A DNA stretch of 64,000 nt from Stygiobacter sp. RIFOXYC2_FULL_38_25 (GTDB taxonomy: Bacteria > Bacteroidota > Ignavibacteria > Ignavibacteriales > Melioribacteraceae), in the NCBI GenBank assembly GCA_001803165.1, contig MHAZ01000021.1:558001-622000 (forward strand), written 5' to 3'. The notes beneath the pieces were generated by a model. The model worked only from the letters and a program-made list of their open reading frames with translations. It ran no database searches and was not told where the DNA came from. Below are positions 14,278 through 19,196 of this stretch, one piece after another. The position numbers and the translations under genes are program-made. The stretch's first letter is position 1. Every line of letters starts with the position of its first letter.

Positions 14278-14303
14278 GAGACGTTCCAGCGGAACGTCTT
14301 TAC
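14278..14303. repeat. Dispersed hairpin repeat at the PadR/thrC junction
   Basis: AGACGTTCC-AGC-GGAACGTCT (14279-14299) is a perfect 9-bp stem with a three-base loop, followed by TTAC. It lies between two converging genes and includes the first base of the thrC stop codon. The closely related AGACGTTGCATGCAACGTCT occurs at 27274. It may act as a bidirectional terminator, but its sequence family suggests a mobile or dispersed palindrome. Confidence 0.65.
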
Positions 14304-15604
14304 AAGGCGAATAAATATTCTTTCAAAGAATTGTAATCTGAAGAGAGCGACACAGCTCTCTTTTCTTTTGTCAAACAAGCCGCAAGTCTTTCCGGAATTT
14401 CAACATTAATATTCAATTCTTCTTCAACTACATCTTTGAATTTTGCCGGATGAGCAGTTTCCAAAACAATTGAAGTAAATTTCTCTGTAGAATTTCCCTT
14501 TAGAAATTTTTCCAAAGCCGAATAGCCAACCGCACCGTGAGGATCAATTACATAATTATTTTTTTCGAATACATCTTTTATCGCTTCGCGCGTTTGTTCA
14601 TCACTAAAAGTAGCGGAATAAATATCATTCCGAATTTCTGAAACCGAGTTTGAATACAAATCAACTATTCTTGCAAGATTACTTGGATTGCCAACATCCA
14701 TTGCGTTTGAAAGTGTTTGAACGGATGCGCGCGGATTAAAATTTCCACTTTGAATGAATTCAGTGAAAACATCATTCTTATTTGTAGCGCCGATAAATTT
14801 GTGAATTGGTAAGCCCATTTTCTTTGCTAACAATCCGGCTGTGATGTTGCCTAGATTTCCCGAAGGAACAGAAAAAACAACCGGGTGAGTTTTATCGGGA
14901 ATTTGTTTGTATGCTTCCATGTAGTAAAAAGATTGGGGAAGCAAGCGCGCAATGTTAATTGAATTAGCAGAAGATAAGTTTAGTTTACTTGTTAATTCCG
15001 AATCAACAAAAGCAGATTTTACTAAACGCTGGCAATCATCAAACGTTCCATCTATTTCAAGCGCTGTAATATTTTTATCAAGAGTAGTTAATTGCTGTTC
15101 TTGAATCTTGCTTACTTTTCCTTTTGGATAGAGAATGTAAACACTAATTCCCGGCGTGTTATAAAAACCATTTGCAACAGCGCTGCCGGTATCGCCGCTA
15201 GTAGCAACAAGAATATTAAGGTGAGAATTTTCCTTCTGCGCAAAGTAACCCATCGTCTTTGCCATGAAGCGCGCACCAAAATCTTTGAACGCTAAAGTTG
15301 GTCCATGAAATAGTTCGAGCACAAATAGATTTTTATCTATCTCAACAATTGGCGCGGGAAAGCTTATCGCTTCGGTTACAATCTCTTCAAGTTTGGCTTG
15401 CGGAATTTCATCTTCGATAAAATATTTAGAAACTTCGAGAGCAATTTCCACAAACGATTTGTTTTCAATGCTCTCAAAAAATTCTCTAGGAAACTTTGGA
15501 ATGAACTCCGGCATAAACAAACCGCCATCGTCAGCTAAACCTTTCATCACCGCTTGTTCGAAAGAGAATAATTTGTTTTTACTATTTGTGCTGTAATATT
15601 TCAT
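14300..15604 (-). CDS. thrC: Threonine synthase
   Basis: 434 residues, the longer form of the family. The PLP lysine is in FHGPTLAFKDFGARFM near residue 110, and the substrate-side motifs ATSGDTGSAVANGF and VPSGNLGNITAG are present. It converts O-phosphohomoserine to threonine and closes the operon. Its ATG overlaps the thrB stop by four bases, so the two are probably translationally coupled. Expression should follow the threonine-rich leader upstream of the operon. Confidence 0.97.
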   Translation of the reverse strand: MKYYSTNSKNKLFSFEQAVMKGLADDGGLFMPEFIPKFPREFFESIENKSFVEIALEVSKYFIEDEIPQAKLEEIVTEAISFPAPIVEIDKNLFVLELFHGPTLAFKDFGARFMAKTMGYFAQKENSHLNILVATSGDTGSAVANGFYNTPGISVYILYPKGKVSKIQEQQLTTLDKNITALEIDGTFDDCQRLVKSAFVDSELTSKLNLSSANSINIARLLPQSFYYMEAYKQIPDKTHPVVFSVPSGNLGNITAGLLAKKMGLPIHKFIGATNKNDVFTEFIQSGNFNPRASVQTLSNAMDVGNPSNLARIVDLYSNSVSEIRNDIYSATFSDEQTREAIKDVFEKNNYVIDPHGAVGYSALEKFLKGNSTEKFTSIVLETAHPAKFKDVVEEELNINVEIPERLAACLTKEKRAVSLSSDYNSLKEYLFAL

Positions 15605-16530
15605 ATTAAAACTCGTGGACCTTTTTCGTTAATCTTAGAAACATAAGTTTTACTACCGAAGCCTTTTTTCTTTGCGGCTTTTTTCATTTCAAGAGCAATG
15701 CGCTCTGCATCTATTTGCGAAGTAGAAAAGGCGAACATAGATGGACCGGAACCGGAAATGTTACAATTAATCGCGCCGGCGTTTAAAGCTGCTTGGCGGA
15801 TTTCATCATAACAAGGAATTAGTGTTGCGCGTTTCGGTTCCGCAAATAGATCTATTATTGATCTTCCGATTAAGGAAATGTCATTCCGCAAAAGTCCGGC
15901 AACCAAACCCGCTGCGTTACCAGCTTGAGCAATTCCGGTTTTGAGTTCAAACGTTTTATCTAAAATTCTTCTCGCATCAATTGTCTTTATAACAATATCC
16001 GGATAAACAATAGAGCAGAATAAATTCCTTGGGTAATCGAGTTGAATAATATCTATTGGATTGTAAGAACGGATTAAAACAAATCCGCCAAACAAAGCCG
16101 GCGCTACATTATCCGCATGAACACTTCCGCTGGCGATAAACTCACCGGCTATCGCGTGTTCAAGCAAATCGAGCTTACTAAGTTTTAAGTTGAGCAATTT
16201 ATTTATGGCGAACACACCGCCTACTGAACTTGCCGCGCTGGAACCGAGTCCGCTGCCAATTCCCATTTTCTTGTGAATTGCAACATCGAGCCCAACGTTA
16301 ATATTGTATTTGTTGAGCAATGATTTAATTGCGCCCGTGGTTGTGTTCTTTTCGGGATCAAGTGGAAGCTTTCCGCCATCGCCGGTAATTTTTGTTATTC
16401 TAATTTCTTTCGAACTGTTTAATTTTATTTCTACTTCATCGCCAGGTTCGTGAAGCGCAAAGCCCATCATATCGAAACCGGGACCAACGTTTGAAACAGA
16501 AGCGGGAGCGAATACTTTTATTTTTTTCAT
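15601..16530 (-). CDS. thrB: Homoserine kinase
   Basis: 309 residues, a GHMP-family kinase. ASVSNVGPGFDMMGFAL lies at the N-terminus, the phosphate-binding loop GIGSGLGSSAASSVG near residues 90-104, and the C-terminal GSGPSMFAF. It phosphorylates homoserine with ATP. It overlaps asd upstream and thrC downstream by four bases each. No homoserine dehydrogenase gene is present in this operon, so the substrate must come from an enzyme encoded elsewhere. Confidence 0.97.
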   Translation of the reverse strand: MKKIKVFAPASVSNVGPGFDMMGFALHEPGDEVEIKLNSSKEIRITKITGDGGKLPLDPEKNTTTGAIKSLLNKYNINVGLDVAIHKKMGIGSGLGSSAASSVGGVFAINKLLNLKLSKLDLLEHAIAGEFIASGSVHADNVAPALFGGFVLIRSYNPIDIIQLDYPRNLFCSIVYPDIVIKTIDARRILDKTFELKTGIAQAGNAAGLVAGLLRNDISLIGRSIIDLFAEPKRATLIPCYDEIRQAALNAGAINCNISGSGPSMFAFSTSQIDAERIALEMKKAAKKKGFGSKTYVSKINEKGPRVLI

Positions 16531-17567
16531 CCACTAATTCCTTGAGCTTTCATCAGCTCTGCGATAAGAATTGTTCCGCCCGCCGCGCCGCGAATAGTAT
16601 TATGAGATAGCACAACAAACTTAAAATCGAAAAGTGAATCTTCGCGCAATCTGCCAACAGCAACGCCCATTCCGTTACCAAGATTACGATGAACGCGCGG
16701 CTGCGGATATCTGTCTTCGCTGAAATAAGTTATAACAGGATTTGGCGCGAAGGGAAGCGCAAGCGCTTGCGGTAAAGATTTAAACTCGCTCCACACTTTA
16801 ATAATTTCTTCTTTAGTTGGTTTCGATTTTAATTTCACTTGAACACATTCTGTGTGACCATCAATTACACCAACTCTATTACACTGAGCGCTGATCATAA
16901 AATCAGCGTTAACAAATTTATTGTTAACGATAGAGCCAAAAATTTTCAGCGGTTCACTTTCCATTTTGGCTTCTTCACCGCCAATGAAAGGAACAACGTT
17001 ATCTATTATATCAAGACTTGGTAAGCCGGGATATCCGGCGCCGGAAATAGCTTGCATTGTTACAACATTTACGGCTTCCAAACCAAAATTATCTTGAAGC
17101 GGTTTTAGCGCAATTGCCAAACCAATTGTTGAGCAGTTTGGATTGGTAACAATTCCACCTTTGTAGTTTTGCGCCTTCACAACTTCTAAGTGATTGTGAT
17201 TTATTTCTGGAATCATTAACGGCACATCCGCATCAAAGCGGTGATTGCGCGCGTTTGAAATAACATAGCAGCCGGCTTCTGCAAGGGCTGTTTCAATTTC
17301 GCCAGCAACGTTAGCATCCAATCCGGAGAAAGCAACTTTAGATTCTAAACTTGTATCGCACTTTTTCACAATCATGTTCGCGTACTTTTCCGGCAGCGGC
17401 GTTTGCATAATCCAGTTTGTTGCTTCCGCATATTTTTTCCCGGCGGAACGGTCTGACGCGGCAAGTTCAGTAACTTCGAACCAAGGATGATTTAATAATA
17501 ATTCTACGAAACGCTGACCGACACTTCCGGTAGCACCCAAAACTGCGACTGGAATTTTAGAACTCAT
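16527..17567 (-). CDS. asd: Aspartate-semialdehyde dehydrogenase (archaeal/fungal-type)
   Basis: 346 residues. LGATGSVGQRFVELL with ASDRSAGKKY at the N-terminus is the form seen in archaeal and fungal enzymes rather than the common bacterial GATGAVG form. The catalytic Cys is in TNPNCSTIGL near residue 145, and the substrate-binding region includes DGHTECVQVKL. It reduces aspartyl phosphate to the semialdehyde, the branch point to lysine, methionine and threonine. It overlaps the aspartokinase gene and thrB by four bases each. Confidence 0.95.
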   Translation of the reverse strand: MSSKIPVAVLGATGSVGQRFVELLLNHPWFEVTELAASDRSAGKKYAEATNWIMQTPLPEKYANMIVKKCDTSLESKVAFSGLDANVAGEIETALAEAGCYVISNARNHRFDADVPLMIPEINHNHLEVVKAQNYKGGIVTNPNCSTIGLAIALKPLQDNFGLEAVNVVTMQAISGAGYPGLPSLDIIDNVVPFIGGEEAKMESEPLKIFGSIVNNKFVNADFMISAQCNRVGVIDGHTECVQVKLKSKPTKEEIIKVWSEFKSLPQALALPFAPNPVITYFSEDRYPQPRVHRNLGNGMGVAVGRLREDSLFDFKFVVLSHNTIRGAAGGTILIAELMKAQGISG

Positions 17568-18958
17568 TTTAACCTCTCTAATAAATCTTTGTGAATAGAC
17601 AACAACGCTTTAGGCAAATTGTTTTTGTTGATAACGAGGGAAATATTCAACTCGGAAGAACCTTGAGCGATTGCGATAATGTTAATTCCTTTTTTACCAA
17701 GCGCGTTAAAAACTTTTCCCGCTACTCCAATTGCGTGACGCATTCTTTCCCCAACAACAGCAATAATGGAAAGTTCTTCTTCAACTTTTACCTCGCCGAT
17801 TTTTCCTTCCATAATCTCAAGCTTAAATTCATTCTCAATTACTTTTTTAGCATGCTCGCCAAATTTAGGAAGCACCGCAAAGCAAATACTGTGTTCGGAA
17901 GAAGCTTGAGTAATAAGAATAATATTTATTCCGTTGCGCGCGAGTGCCGCAAATAATCTTCCCGCCACGCCTGTAACGCCTACCATACCGCCGCCTTGCA
18001 CGCGAATGATAGAAATATCATCAATAGATGAAATTCCTTTGATCGGCATTTTGTCGCTGCCGCCTTTTTCAACAATTTCTGTCCCTGGGTGTGTTGGATT
18101 AAACGTATTCTTAATTACAATTTTAATCTTCTTCTGAAGTGCTGGCAGCATTGTTGGTGGATAAATTACCTTTGCGCCGAAGTGTGATAACTCCATTGCT
18201 TCTTCGTAAGTAACTGACTTAAGCGGGAAAGCATCTTTAACCTTTCTCGGATCAGCGGTTAATATTCCATCAACGTCGGTCCATATTTCTATTGCCGAAG
18301 AATTGAGCGCCGCGCCAAATACAGAAGCTGTATAATCGGAGCCGCCGCGTCCGAGTGTAGTAATTTCGTTTTTATCAGTAGAAGAAATGAAACCGGTTAT
18401 TATCTGAACTTTATTGTGCCGCTTAAAATATTTTATGATGTTTTTGTTTGTCGAAGCAAAATTTACACGCGCGTTACCAAATTCAGAATTTGTTTTAACG
18501 AGTTTGCTCGCGTCAAGATATTCGGCTTCAACACCACGGTTGCAAAGGGATTCCGCAATAATTGTATTGGATAATTTTTCACCAAAGCTTTGGATGTAAT
18601 CAAGAGTTCTTGCGGAAAGTTCGCGCACAAGATAAACGCCGTGTGTTACTTCCTTTAGCTCATCAAACAGCTTATCAAGCTTTTCTACTATTTCTTCATG
18701 CTTGCCGGTTGGATTCAGCCGGAAAGCCGTATCGTAATGCCGTTCGATTAGCTGCTCAATTTCCGCTTTGTACGTTAACTTTCTCTGGAAAGCAAGCTTG
18801 CCGATTTCAATCAGTTTATCCGTTACGCCTTGAAACGCAGAGAAGACAACAGCAATTTTCTTTTTCTTGTTGATGTAGTTGTTAATCAGAATTGAAATCA
18901 CATCATCAATTCTTTCAGCACTGCCTACACTCGATCCGCCAAATTTTAGTACTATCAT
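17564..18958 (-). CDS. lysC: Monofunctional aspartokinase with two ACT domains
   Basis: 464 residues and the first enzyme gene of the operon. KFGGSSVGS at residues 5-13, ITTLGRGGSDYTAS near 205 and TDVDGILTADPR mark the kinase. Two ACT domains follow (about 310-380 and 390-460), e.g. VTGVAGRLFAALARNGINI and IGVAGKVFNALGKKGINI, the usual site of feedback inhibition by threonine or lysine. The C-terminus resembles the linker of aspartokinase-homoserine dehydrogenase fusions, but no dehydrogenase domain is attached. I use lysC by function; thrA-type regulation is possible. Confidence 0.93.
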   Translation of the reverse strand: MIVLKFGGSSVGSAERIDDVISILINNYINKKKKIAVVFSAFQGVTDKLIEIGKLAFQRKLTYKAEIEQLIERHYDTAFRLNPTGKHEEIVEKLDKLFDELKEVTHGVYLVRELSARTLDYIQSFGEKLSNTIIAESLCNRGVEAEYLDASKLVKTNSEFGNARVNFASTNKNIIKYFKRHNKVQIITGFISSTDKNEITTLGRGGSDYTASVFGAALNSSAIEIWTDVDGILTADPRKVKDAFPLKSVTYEEAMELSHFGAKVIYPPTMLPALQKKIKIVIKNTFNPTHPGTEIVEKGGSDKMPIKGISSIDDISIIRVQGGGMVGVTGVAGRLFAALARNGINIILITQASSEHSICFAVLPKFGEHAKKVIENEFKLEIMEGKIGEVKVEEELSIIAVVGERMRHAIGVAGKVFNALGKKGINIIAIAQGSSELNISLVINKNNLPKALLSIHKDLLERLK

Positions 18959-18971
18959 GGTAAAATTTACC
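18959..18971. promoter_or_regulatory. 13-bp palindrome touching the aspartokinase start
   Basis: GGTAAA-A-TTTACC lies directly against the aspartokinase ATG (18958 on the minus strand). In the RNA it could pair next to the ribosome entry site, whose only candidate Shine-Dalgarno is AAGGG at its edge. It could be an operator or a translational control hairpin. Its short length makes chance possible. Confidence 0.3.
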
Positions 18972-19008
18972 CTTGTTGTTATAAATTTATGTAGAAACTA
19001 GAAAGAAT

Positions 19009-19024
19009 GCGCTAAAATTAACGC
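19009..19024 (-). terminator. Possible attenuator hairpin after the leader ORF
   Basis: In the leader RNA GCGUUAAUUUUAGCGC can form a six-pair stem (one G-U pair) with a tetraloop, overlapping the leader stop codon. A pyrimidine-rich run (AUUCUUUCU) follows. This position, directly after the Thr codons, suits an attenuator. The stem is weak and the uridine run interrupted, so folding of the whole leader is needed before calling it a terminator. Confidence 0.35.
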
Positions 19025-19140
19025 GTCATGGTTTGCGTGTGCGTGGATGTAGCCGTAAGAAGAATTGATATTACTTTGCTTGCCCGCGAAGAGCAGTAAA
19101 AGTTTTTATCGGGGTTATATTTTGTGTTTTGCTTAATCAT
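19018..19140 (-). CDS. Threonine-rich leader peptide of the thr operon
   Basis: A 40-codon ORF from ATG at 19140 to TAA at 19018, between the predicted promoter and the aspartokinase gene. Residues 28-39 read LTATSTHTQTMT: Thr at 29, 31, 33, 35, 37 and 39, every second codon, preceded by VISILL. Leader peptides with runs of Thr and Ile control the thrABC operon of enterobacteria by attenuation. The stop lies 59 bases before the aspartokinase start. No clear Shine-Dalgarno site precedes it, which is common in this phylum. Stem-loops are possible inside it (19071-19099: TTACT and GCT pair with AGC and AGTAA) and after it. Function is inferred from composition and position. Confidence 0.75.
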   Translation of the reverse strand: MIKQNTKYNPDKNFYCSSRASKVISILLTATSTHTQTMTR

Positions 19141-19167
19141 ATTACAAAATGTGTAAATCTGGAGTCG

Positions 19168-19196
19168 AGTATAATAATCAAATTAAATAGATACAA
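19168..19196 (-). promoter_or_regulatory. Predicted promoter of the threonine operon
   Basis: On the minus strand TTGTAT (19196-19191) is followed by a 17-base spacer and TATACT (19173-19168), a good vegetative-type promoter. Transcription would start near 19161, about 20 bases before the ATG of the leader ORF, which supports that ORF as the first translated element of the operon. Confidence 0.55.

What the first reader, a model, noticed from the sequence alone, without database searches (positions are those of the whole stretch)
19018..19196. Threonine-rich leader peptide and attenuator in front of the aspartokinase-asd-thrB-thrC operon
Between a promoter (TTGTAT-N17-TATACT) and the aspartokinase gene lies a 40-codon ORF in which Thr occupies residues 29, 31, 33, 35, 37 and 39, i.e. 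every second codon just before the stop. Ile and Leu codons precede them. A hairpin overlaps the stop and another lies inside the ORF. Thr/Ile leader peptides regulate thr operons by attenuation in enterobacteria; I do not know of one described for this phylum. The alternating rather than contiguous Thr codons are unusual.
Basis: partly seen in the sequence, partly recalled or inferred. Interest (0 to 1): 0.88.

Follow-up and report, generated by a model that had tools for sequence, protein, structure and literature searches.

The report
Terminator-less threonine leader peptide, thr operon
Just in front of its threonine-making genes this bacterium encodes a tiny threonine-rich peptide that very probably works as a threonine sensor, and in this bacterial family it appears to do so without the usual stop-signal hairpin, so how it switches the genes is open to test.

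Summary
The ORF is conserved. Of 15 full-length, separately encoded operon aspartokinases found in the family (Melioribacteraceae, Ignavibacteriota), 14 have a Thr-codon leader ending 51-73 nt before the gene, each with a TTG-N20-TANNNT promoter (2.2 expected by chance). A threonine-sensing leader peptide is very likely.

The attenuator half is not supported here. The hairpins are ordinary against shuffles, none covaries, and 1 of 14 leaders has a terminator-like site. Relatives with fused thrA have textbook thr attenuators (terminators in 21 of 22; covarying antiterminator), and this genome's own trp and his leaders have terminators. The family's thr leaders differ systematically: Thr codons reach the penultimate codon (median 2 versus 6 codons from the stop), 52 of 70 are the rare codon ACG, the last codon is always YGY, and the spacer is C-rich and G-poor. 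The family's ilv leaders also have regulatory codons at the stop.

Best reading: threonine-starved ribosomes stall at the stop and block a non-intrinsic, perhaps Rho-dependent, terminator. New variant of a known kind.

The parts
19191..19196 (-). -35 hexamer TTGTAT
   Evidence: sequence; a TTG-N20-TANNNT promoter before the leader start in 14 of 14 loci, 2.2 expected from shuffles
19168..19173 (-). -10 hexamer TATACT; transcript start inferred near 19161
   Evidence: sequence, conservation; start site inferred, not mapped
19018..19140 (-). leader peptide ORF, 40 codons
   Evidence: G000/G003 pair: no indel, 8 of 16 changed codons synonymous, simulated P 0.008
19024..19056 (-). regulatory Thr codons (residues 29-39); over the 14 leaders mostly ACG
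19018..19026 (-). conserved nucleotides ACG-YGY-TRR at the end of the ORF (here ACG CGT TAA)
   Evidence: last sense codon YGY in 14 of 14 leaders; codon before it ACG in 12, ATG in 1, ATT in 1
19009..19024 (-). weak hairpin over the stop codon; not an intrinsic terminator by the criteria
   Evidence: no covariation
18959..19017 (-). leader stop to AK start: C-rich, G-poor, no terminator found; candidate Rho entry region (inferred)
18970..18974 (-). AAGGG, likely ribosome binding site of the aspartokinase gene
   Evidence: sequence
17564..18958 (-). aspartokinase (AK)
16527..17567 (-). asd, aspartate-semialdehyde dehydrogenase
15601..16530 (-). thrB, homoserine kinase
14300..15604 (-). thrC, threonine synthase

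Best explanation
A threonine-sensing leader peptide for the thr operon whose output does not use an intrinsic terminator. Supported by conservation: a promoter, a short ORF with Thr codons (mostly ACG, the rarest Thr codon) running to the penultimate codon in most species, and the operon 51-73 nt further on. Inferred: when charged Thr-tRNA is scarce, the ribosome stalls on the last Thr codons, its footprint covers the stop codon and the start of the C-rich, G-poor spacer, and RNA polymerase continues into AK-asd-thrB-thrC. When threonine is plentiful, the ribosome ends the peptide and leaves, the spacer is exposed and transcription stops early, most likely through Rho, with the geometry of the tna operon leader. 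Confidence: threonine-sensing leader peptide 0.9; no intrinsic terminator 0.85; Rho as the output 0.4-0.45. The number below is for the whole chain.
For: Leader ORF in 14 of 15 separately encoded operon AKs; the 15th, L017, has only 256 nt of upstream sequence to the contig end. asd and thrB follow the AK in 14 of 14 loci tested (13 of the 14 leader loci, and L017; L091 not tested); thrC too in 5 of 5 longer loci. Promoter 14 of 14. ACG is 52 of 70 Thr codons in the last 13, against 117 of 881 in the window's long ORFs and 7 of 122 in the last 20 codons of 19 fused-class leaders. Of the 54 ACG triplets in this stretch 52 are in frame. One tRNA-Thr gene each for GGT, TGT and CGT among the 44 tRNA matches. 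Last Thr codon a median 2 codons before the stop, against 6 in 19 classical leaders. Terminator: 1 of 14 against 21 of 22, and present in own trp and his. Spacer C>G in 14 of 14, against 19 of 38 AK loci without a Thr ORF (P 1e-6), 4 of 21 fused loci with one and 8 of 17 window genes (P 0.001). Rho gene present. Masking the leader moves AK start accessibility up in 8, down in 4 and not at all in 2 of 14. ilv leaders of this genome and 11 relatives: last Ile/Leu/Val codon 2 before the stop in 12 of 12.
Against: No transcript, ribosome or Rho data. C>G bias is a weak sign of Rho use; the loci are related, so the P values are too small; over the whole leader the C/G ratios of AK loci without a leader (0.45-2.18, 23 loci) overlap this class. 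Third-position excess holds for one close pair only; over four pairs there is none (31:23:28, P 0.55). Windows of RNA in the ORF and just after the stop are somewhat more stable than shuffles over 13 leaders (Stouffer -2.9 and -3.2 at -60 and -40, -2.5 and -2.8 at +10 and +20), so a structure that my tests miss is possible. G020 has only 2 Thr in its last 12 codons. G017 has a terminator-like hairpin (-10.7 kcal/mol). Two classical leaders (L063, L066) also have Thr 2 codons before the stop. Six of 14 leader starts as I assigned them are GTG or TTG, and where several starts were possible I took the one that follows the promoter, so the constant promoter distance is partly by choice.
Confidence: 0.45

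Rival explanations
1. Classical attenuation after all: the hairpin over the stop acts as a weak intrinsic terminator and stalled ribosomes prevent it.
For: Stop hairpin 19024-19009 with 5 T in the next 8 bases; hairpins near the stop also in G050, G036, G042, G013, G017, G068, G020; windows after the stop lean to extra stability (Stouffer -2.5 to -2.8 over 13 leaders); true in relatives with fused thrA; a paper on leader genes puts the least distance for attenuation at 40 bp (PMC4833913, passage read), which 51-73 nt meets.
Against: 1 of 14 passes the terminator criteria that 21 of 22 classical ones pass; no covariation, P 0.09-0.65, where the same test gives P<0.0002 in the classical class; the hairpin differs between species and G011 gave no candidate; Thr codons so near the stop leave little room for an antiterminator (inference).
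Confidence: 0.2
2. Translational control: stalling or completing the leader changes translation initiation of AK (exposing its start, or reinitiation from the leader stop).
For: Short spacer of 51-73 nt; leader genes close to genes have been proposed to raise translation by reinitiation (PMC4833913, abstract and passages read).
Against: AK start accessibility is not shifted consistently by masking the leader (up 8, down 4, same 2 of 14); no covarying pairing of leader end and AK start, P 0.61; the peak distances in that paper are 10-16 nt, far shorter.
Confidence: 0.2
3. The repeated ACG and the YGY-stop motif are a binding site for an RNA- or DNA-binding regulator, and the Thr codons are partly a by-product.
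For: ACG choice (52 of 70) and YGY at the stop (14 of 14) go beyond amino acid choice; Arg and Cys swap while YGY stays.
Against: Other Thr triplets also favour the frame (18 in frame, 9 and 2 in the others); the frame ends in a stop after the motif in all 14; the operon makes threonine; ilv leaders with other codons share the geometry.
Confidence: 0.08
4. Chance ORF without function.
For: Peptide N-termini differ strongly between genera.
Against: 14 of 15 conservation, promoter, codon bias.
Confidence: 0.03

Closest known systems
Thr leader attenuators (ThrL of enterobacteria, Rfam Thr_leader; recalled)
   Same: Short Thr-rich ORF between promoter and thr operon; Thr codons near the end.
   Different: No intrinsic terminator or antiterminator found; no Rfam match in the window at gathering scores; Thr codons reach the penultimate codon; ACG-biased.
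thr leaders of fused thrA operons in the same order (found here, among L033-L074, and L022)
   Same: Thr-rich leader before the homologous gene.
   Different: Those have terminators (21 of 22) and an antiterminator that contains the leader stop and covaries; ACG rare (7 of 122).
tna operon leader TnaC with Rho-dependent termination (PMC3902921, passages read)
   Same: Ribosome halted at the end of the leader ORF keeps Rho from acting in the spacer; no intrinsic terminator needed.
   Different: TnaC is arrested by free tryptophan through its nascent peptide; here a shortage of charged tRNA would halt the ribosome. Rho use here is inferred.
ilv leaders of the same family (found here)
   Same: Regulatory codons end 2 codons before the stop in 12 of 12; no terminator in this genome's ilv leader by the rule.
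   Different: Ile/Leu/Val codons; in 10 of 12 a conserved hairpin motif follows the stop, which thr leaders lack; G013 and G043 have a longer hairpin with a U-rich tail.

Membership tests
Leader-peptide attenuator of a thr operon (ThrL type) | Short ORF between promoter and the thr operon | tested here: met
   14 of 15 loci
Leader-peptide attenuator of a thr operon (ThrL type) | Cluster of codons for the operon's product near the end of the ORF | tested here: met
   2 to 7 Thr in the last 12 codons in 14 leaders; 6 in this one
Leader-peptide attenuator of a thr operon (ThrL type) | Intrinsic terminator between leader and first gene | tested here: not met
   1 of 14 (not this one) against 21 of 22 in the classical class
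Leader-peptide attenuator of a thr operon (ThrL type) | Antiterminator that excludes the terminator | tested here: not met
   no covarying pairing over 13 leaders, P 0.09-0.65; positive control of 19 loci P<0.0002
Leader-peptide attenuator of a thr operon (ThrL type) | Expression rises on threonine starvation | not testable with these tools
   needs culture and reporters
Rho-dependent leader-peptide control (TnaC type) | Ribosome halt site at or next to the leader stop | tested here: inconclusive
   last Thr codon 2 codons before the stop in 12 of 14; that ribosomes halt there is not tested
Rho-dependent leader-peptide control (TnaC type) | C-rich, G-poor unstructured RNA after the leader, and Rho in the genome | tested here: inconclusive
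   C>G in 14 of 14, rho present; composition alone does not prove a Rho site
Rho-dependent leader-peptide control (TnaC type) | Termination that needs Rho | not testable with these tools
   needs Rho inhibition or in vitro transcription
T-box or riboswitch | Match to a known RNA family | tested here: not met
   0 matches to 4227 Rfam families in the whole window at gathering scores

The most novel reading that the evidence does not exclude
Melioribacteraceae use a second kind of leader-peptide control, for thr and perhaps ilv, in which the regulatory codons end one codon before the stop and no classical terminator follows; for thr a single rare codon (ACG, with its own tRNA-Thr CGU) is the sensor, and the starved ribosome parked at the stop shields a Rho entry site. 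It would be an amino-acid-starvation version of the tna switch that evolved next to classical attenuators in the same genome.
Probability: 0.33. Interest if true: 0.68.

Novelty: new variant of a known kind. Interest (0 to 1): 0.55.

Why it matters
It puts amino-acid leader-peptide control on comparative ground in Ignavibacteriota (thr, trp, his and ilv leaders in one genome) and shows two architectures side by side: classical terminators for trp and his here and for thr in relatives, and a terminator-less, codons-at-the-stop type for thr. That makes the question of what replaces the intrinsic terminator testable with reporter fusions, and such leaders would be missed by searches that look for terminators first.

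Tried and rejected
Rejected: a conserved RNA switch in the leader. Folding against shuffles, swapped-arm covariation tests (13 leaders, G043c left out, and subsets of 10) and start-site masking gave no conserved structure; the window scan over 13 leaders leans to extra stability in four of 16 windows most clearly and is told under evidence against. Synonymous recoding makes the ACG-rich region less stable, but ACG simply brings more G, so I do not use this as evidence for a structure. Window-to-plasmid DNA search gave nothing. Separately encoded AK paralogues at 52-54% identity in G011, G042 and G054 showed no Thr-rich ORF by the rule (L079, L067, L073). Of 16 fused AK loci in the family among L014-L031, only L022 had a Thr leader, on my reading of the lists (L025 had only 85 nt upstream). 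AK fragments at contig ends (for example in G074, G024, G031, G052, G057) were not examined.

Rows dropped and mended. The first terminator count (20 of 20) left out L041 and L055, two of the 21 fused loci with a Thr ORF; with L055 (terminator -12.6 further upstream) and L041 (none, -1.8) it is 21 of 22 including L022. In two of the 20 (L060, L063) 1 of 20 shuffles did as well. and one search compared composition with hand-picked AK loci without a leader (23 and 22); one search repeats it with all 38 of L032-L090 without a Thr ORF. One search used a constraint that did not act as meant; one search replaces its terminator counts, and I use only for hairpins seen. In one search three ilvD starts were not located; one search covers all 12 loci (there the ORF richest in Ile/Leu/Val was taken) and adds their terminator scan (-2.7, -2.6, -0.4). 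Notebook entries 5 and 6 hold slips corrected here: the last Thr codon is ACG in 14 of 14 (the penultimate codon is ACG in 12 of 14), and the ilv counts.

Papers. Searches for leader-peptide attenuation with threonine, Bacteroidetes, Chlorobi, Ignavibacteria or Melioribacter (listings only, at most the best 20 shown) showed no description of this thr leader. Passages read: a Bacteroides study finds short ORFs in long 5' UTRs reminiscent of leader peptides (PMC7366714); a 2010 terminator survey knew no leader-peptide system outside Proteobacteria and Actinobacteria before its own Bacillus case (PMC2965389). One survey that could hold this case (Lopatovskaya and others 2010, seen only as a reference) is not held.

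Full report
What is there. The window lies in a 4.4-Mb genome of 22 contigs (G000). Its nearest relatives in public data are titled Ignavibacteria and Melioribacter, which NCBI places in Melioribacteraceae, Ignavibacteriota; that this is the genome's family is inferred from those titles. On the minus strand a promoter (19196-19168), a 40-codon ORF (19140-19018) and AK-asd-thrB-thrC (18958-14300) follow one another.

Is it more than chance. Of 1130 ORFs of 15 codons or more in the window one has 6 Thr in its last 12 codons, and 0 of 1000 shuffles of the upstream region reach that; for three relatives the shuffles reach the observed count 1, 0 and 24 times in 1000. Conservation is the stronger evidence. 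I searched 146 relatives (102 with an AK match) and then the 79 genomes of the family (43 with a strong match) with the AK protein or its alignment. Fifteen full-length, separately encoded operon AKs of about 64% identity or more were found; 14 have a Thr-codon ORF that ends 51-73 nt before the AK start. The other (L017) has an upstream region cut at 256 nt. In the 14 a TTG-N20-TANNNT promoter lies 55-66 nt before the assigned leader start; a match anywhere in shuffled sequence is expected in 2.2. Six of the 14 assigned starts are GTG or TTG and some were chosen among several in view of the promoter. asd and thrB follow in 14 of 14 loci tested (13 leader loci and L017), thrC in the 5 longer loci. 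The closest pair (G000/G003) has no indel over 40 codons and 8 of 16 changed codons synonymous (simulated P 0.008); over four pairs the third-position excess is not significant.

The classical version exists next door. Of the 59 AK loci L032-L090 read (same order, some from the same family), 21 have a Thr-rich ORF by the rule, for example ending TTTTTPTGMDGG, usually with a strong hairpin and U-tract before the gene and a stop-codon region complementary to the hairpin's 5' arm. With L022 from the family itself, 21 of 22 have a terminator of -10 kcal/mol or stronger (L041 does not). Own arms of the antiterminator pair better than swapped arms (-17.7 against -15.5 kcal/mol, P<0.0002; 19 loci). 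Within this genome, trpE has a WWW leader and hisG a HAHHTHH leader, each with an intrinsic terminator. Thr-rich ORFs stand before thrA in some Bacteroidota too (for example L112 and L118; not studied further).

This leader is different. By the same criteria 1 of 14 leaders of this class has a terminator (G017). No pair of segments tested covaries. The predicted hairpins differ between species and are ordinary against shuffles here, though over 13 leaders windows in the ORF and just after the stop lean to extra stability (Stouffer -2.5 to -3.2 in the four strongest of 16 windows). The last Thr codon is 2 codons before the stop in 12 of 14 (others 3 and 7), against a median of 6 in 19 classical leaders, two of which also have 2. 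Thr codons in the last 13 are ACG in 52 of 70, against 13% in the window's long ORFs and 7 of 122 in classical leaders. The last sense codon is CGY or TGY in 14 of 14 though this swaps Arg for Cys. The genome has one tRNA-Thr gene each for GGT, TGT and CGT among 44 tRNA matches, so ACG has a dedicated tRNA. The 48 nt that end 14 nt before the AK start are richer in C than G in 14 of 14, against 19 of 38 AK loci without a Thr ORF, 4 of 21 fused loci with one and 8 of 17 window genes. Whole-leader C/G ratios are 1.44-2.25, against 0.75-1.38 in 19 classical ones and 0.45-2.18 in 23 without a leader.

How it most likely works. With regulatory codons next to the stop, a starved ribosome would cover the stop and the first bases of the spacer, so an antiterminator there could hardly fold; the parked ribosome itself is the likely signal. 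The tna operon gives the precedent: a ribosome held at the end of the leader keeps Rho from reaching the polymerase (PMC3902921, passages read). Rho is encoded. AK start accessibility does not depend on the leader in a consistent way, which speaks against an erm-like translational switch. The Rho step is inference; composition alone cannot prove it.

A shared pattern. ilvD was found in 11 of 13 relatives searched. In this genome and those 11 the ilv operon has an Ile/Leu/Val leader whose last regulatory codon is 2 before the stop in 12 of 12. In 10 of 12 the motif TCAATCCC begins 9-14 nt after the first base of the stop and is matched by a downstream GGGATTGAC-like arm with at most 3 T in the nine bases looked at after it. 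Terminator scans of ilv: none at -8 kcal/mol or stronger by the rule in the 6 loci scanned that way (own -6.3; G020, G017, G021, G013, G043); with hairpins up to 59 nt allowed, 2 of 8 relatives (G013, G043, one genus) have one of -11.8 and -13.7 with a U-rich tail. So the codons-at-the-stop geometry is shared by thr and ilv; the lack of a terminator is clear for thr and less so for ilv.

Novelty. Leader-peptide control is a known kind. I found no description of this one in the searches named in Tried and rejected; a Flavobacterium study mentions strong clues for leader-peptide attenuation upstream of amino-acid operons (PMC9723704, passage), and a survey from 2010 could not be read. I file it as a new variant: it may work like a thr attenuator but fails two defining features of that family (terminator, antiterminator).

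Noticed in passing
L203:10839-11090 (-), upstream of ilvD in the same genome, and L250-L260: Ile/Leu/Val leader whose last regulatory codon is 2 before the stop in 12 of 12; in 10 of 12 a TCAATCCC..GGGATTGAC-like hairpin follows without a U-tract, GGGATT also lies inside the leader ORF in 10 of 12 and a CCC-AA segment further down in 6 of 12: possibly alternating segments. G013 and G043 have another, longer hairpin with a U-rich tail.
   Followed up: partly
L204:4513-4673 (+): trpE leader MTKQILNIENKLNRGWWWHILNNRITQ with an intrinsic terminator just before trpE.
   Followed up: partly
L205:3379-3515 (-): hisG leader MNLTIHAHHTHHLNPYRGAGIL with an intrinsic terminator before hisG.
   Followed up: partly
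L110, L112, L118, L122, L131, L133, L142, L160, L161: Thr/Ile-rich ORFs ending about 84-109 nt before thrA in Bacteroidales and Cytophagales-type genomes, the latter often ending TTTITG or similar.
   Followed up: no
L017 (G008), 256 nt upstream of AK: Repetitive C-rich, G-poor sequence (tgcac/gctc repeats) at a contig end in place of a leader.
   Followed up: no
L021 (G013) AK gene: The AK frame appears interrupted near codon 30 (match starts at residue 30, one TAA; the N-terminus reads in another frame), in a genome that also has a fused AK.
   Followed up: no
L006, L011, L013 leaders: ATGAGC at the leader start and GCTCAT just before the Thr codons form an inverted repeat around the front of the ORF.
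   Followed up: no
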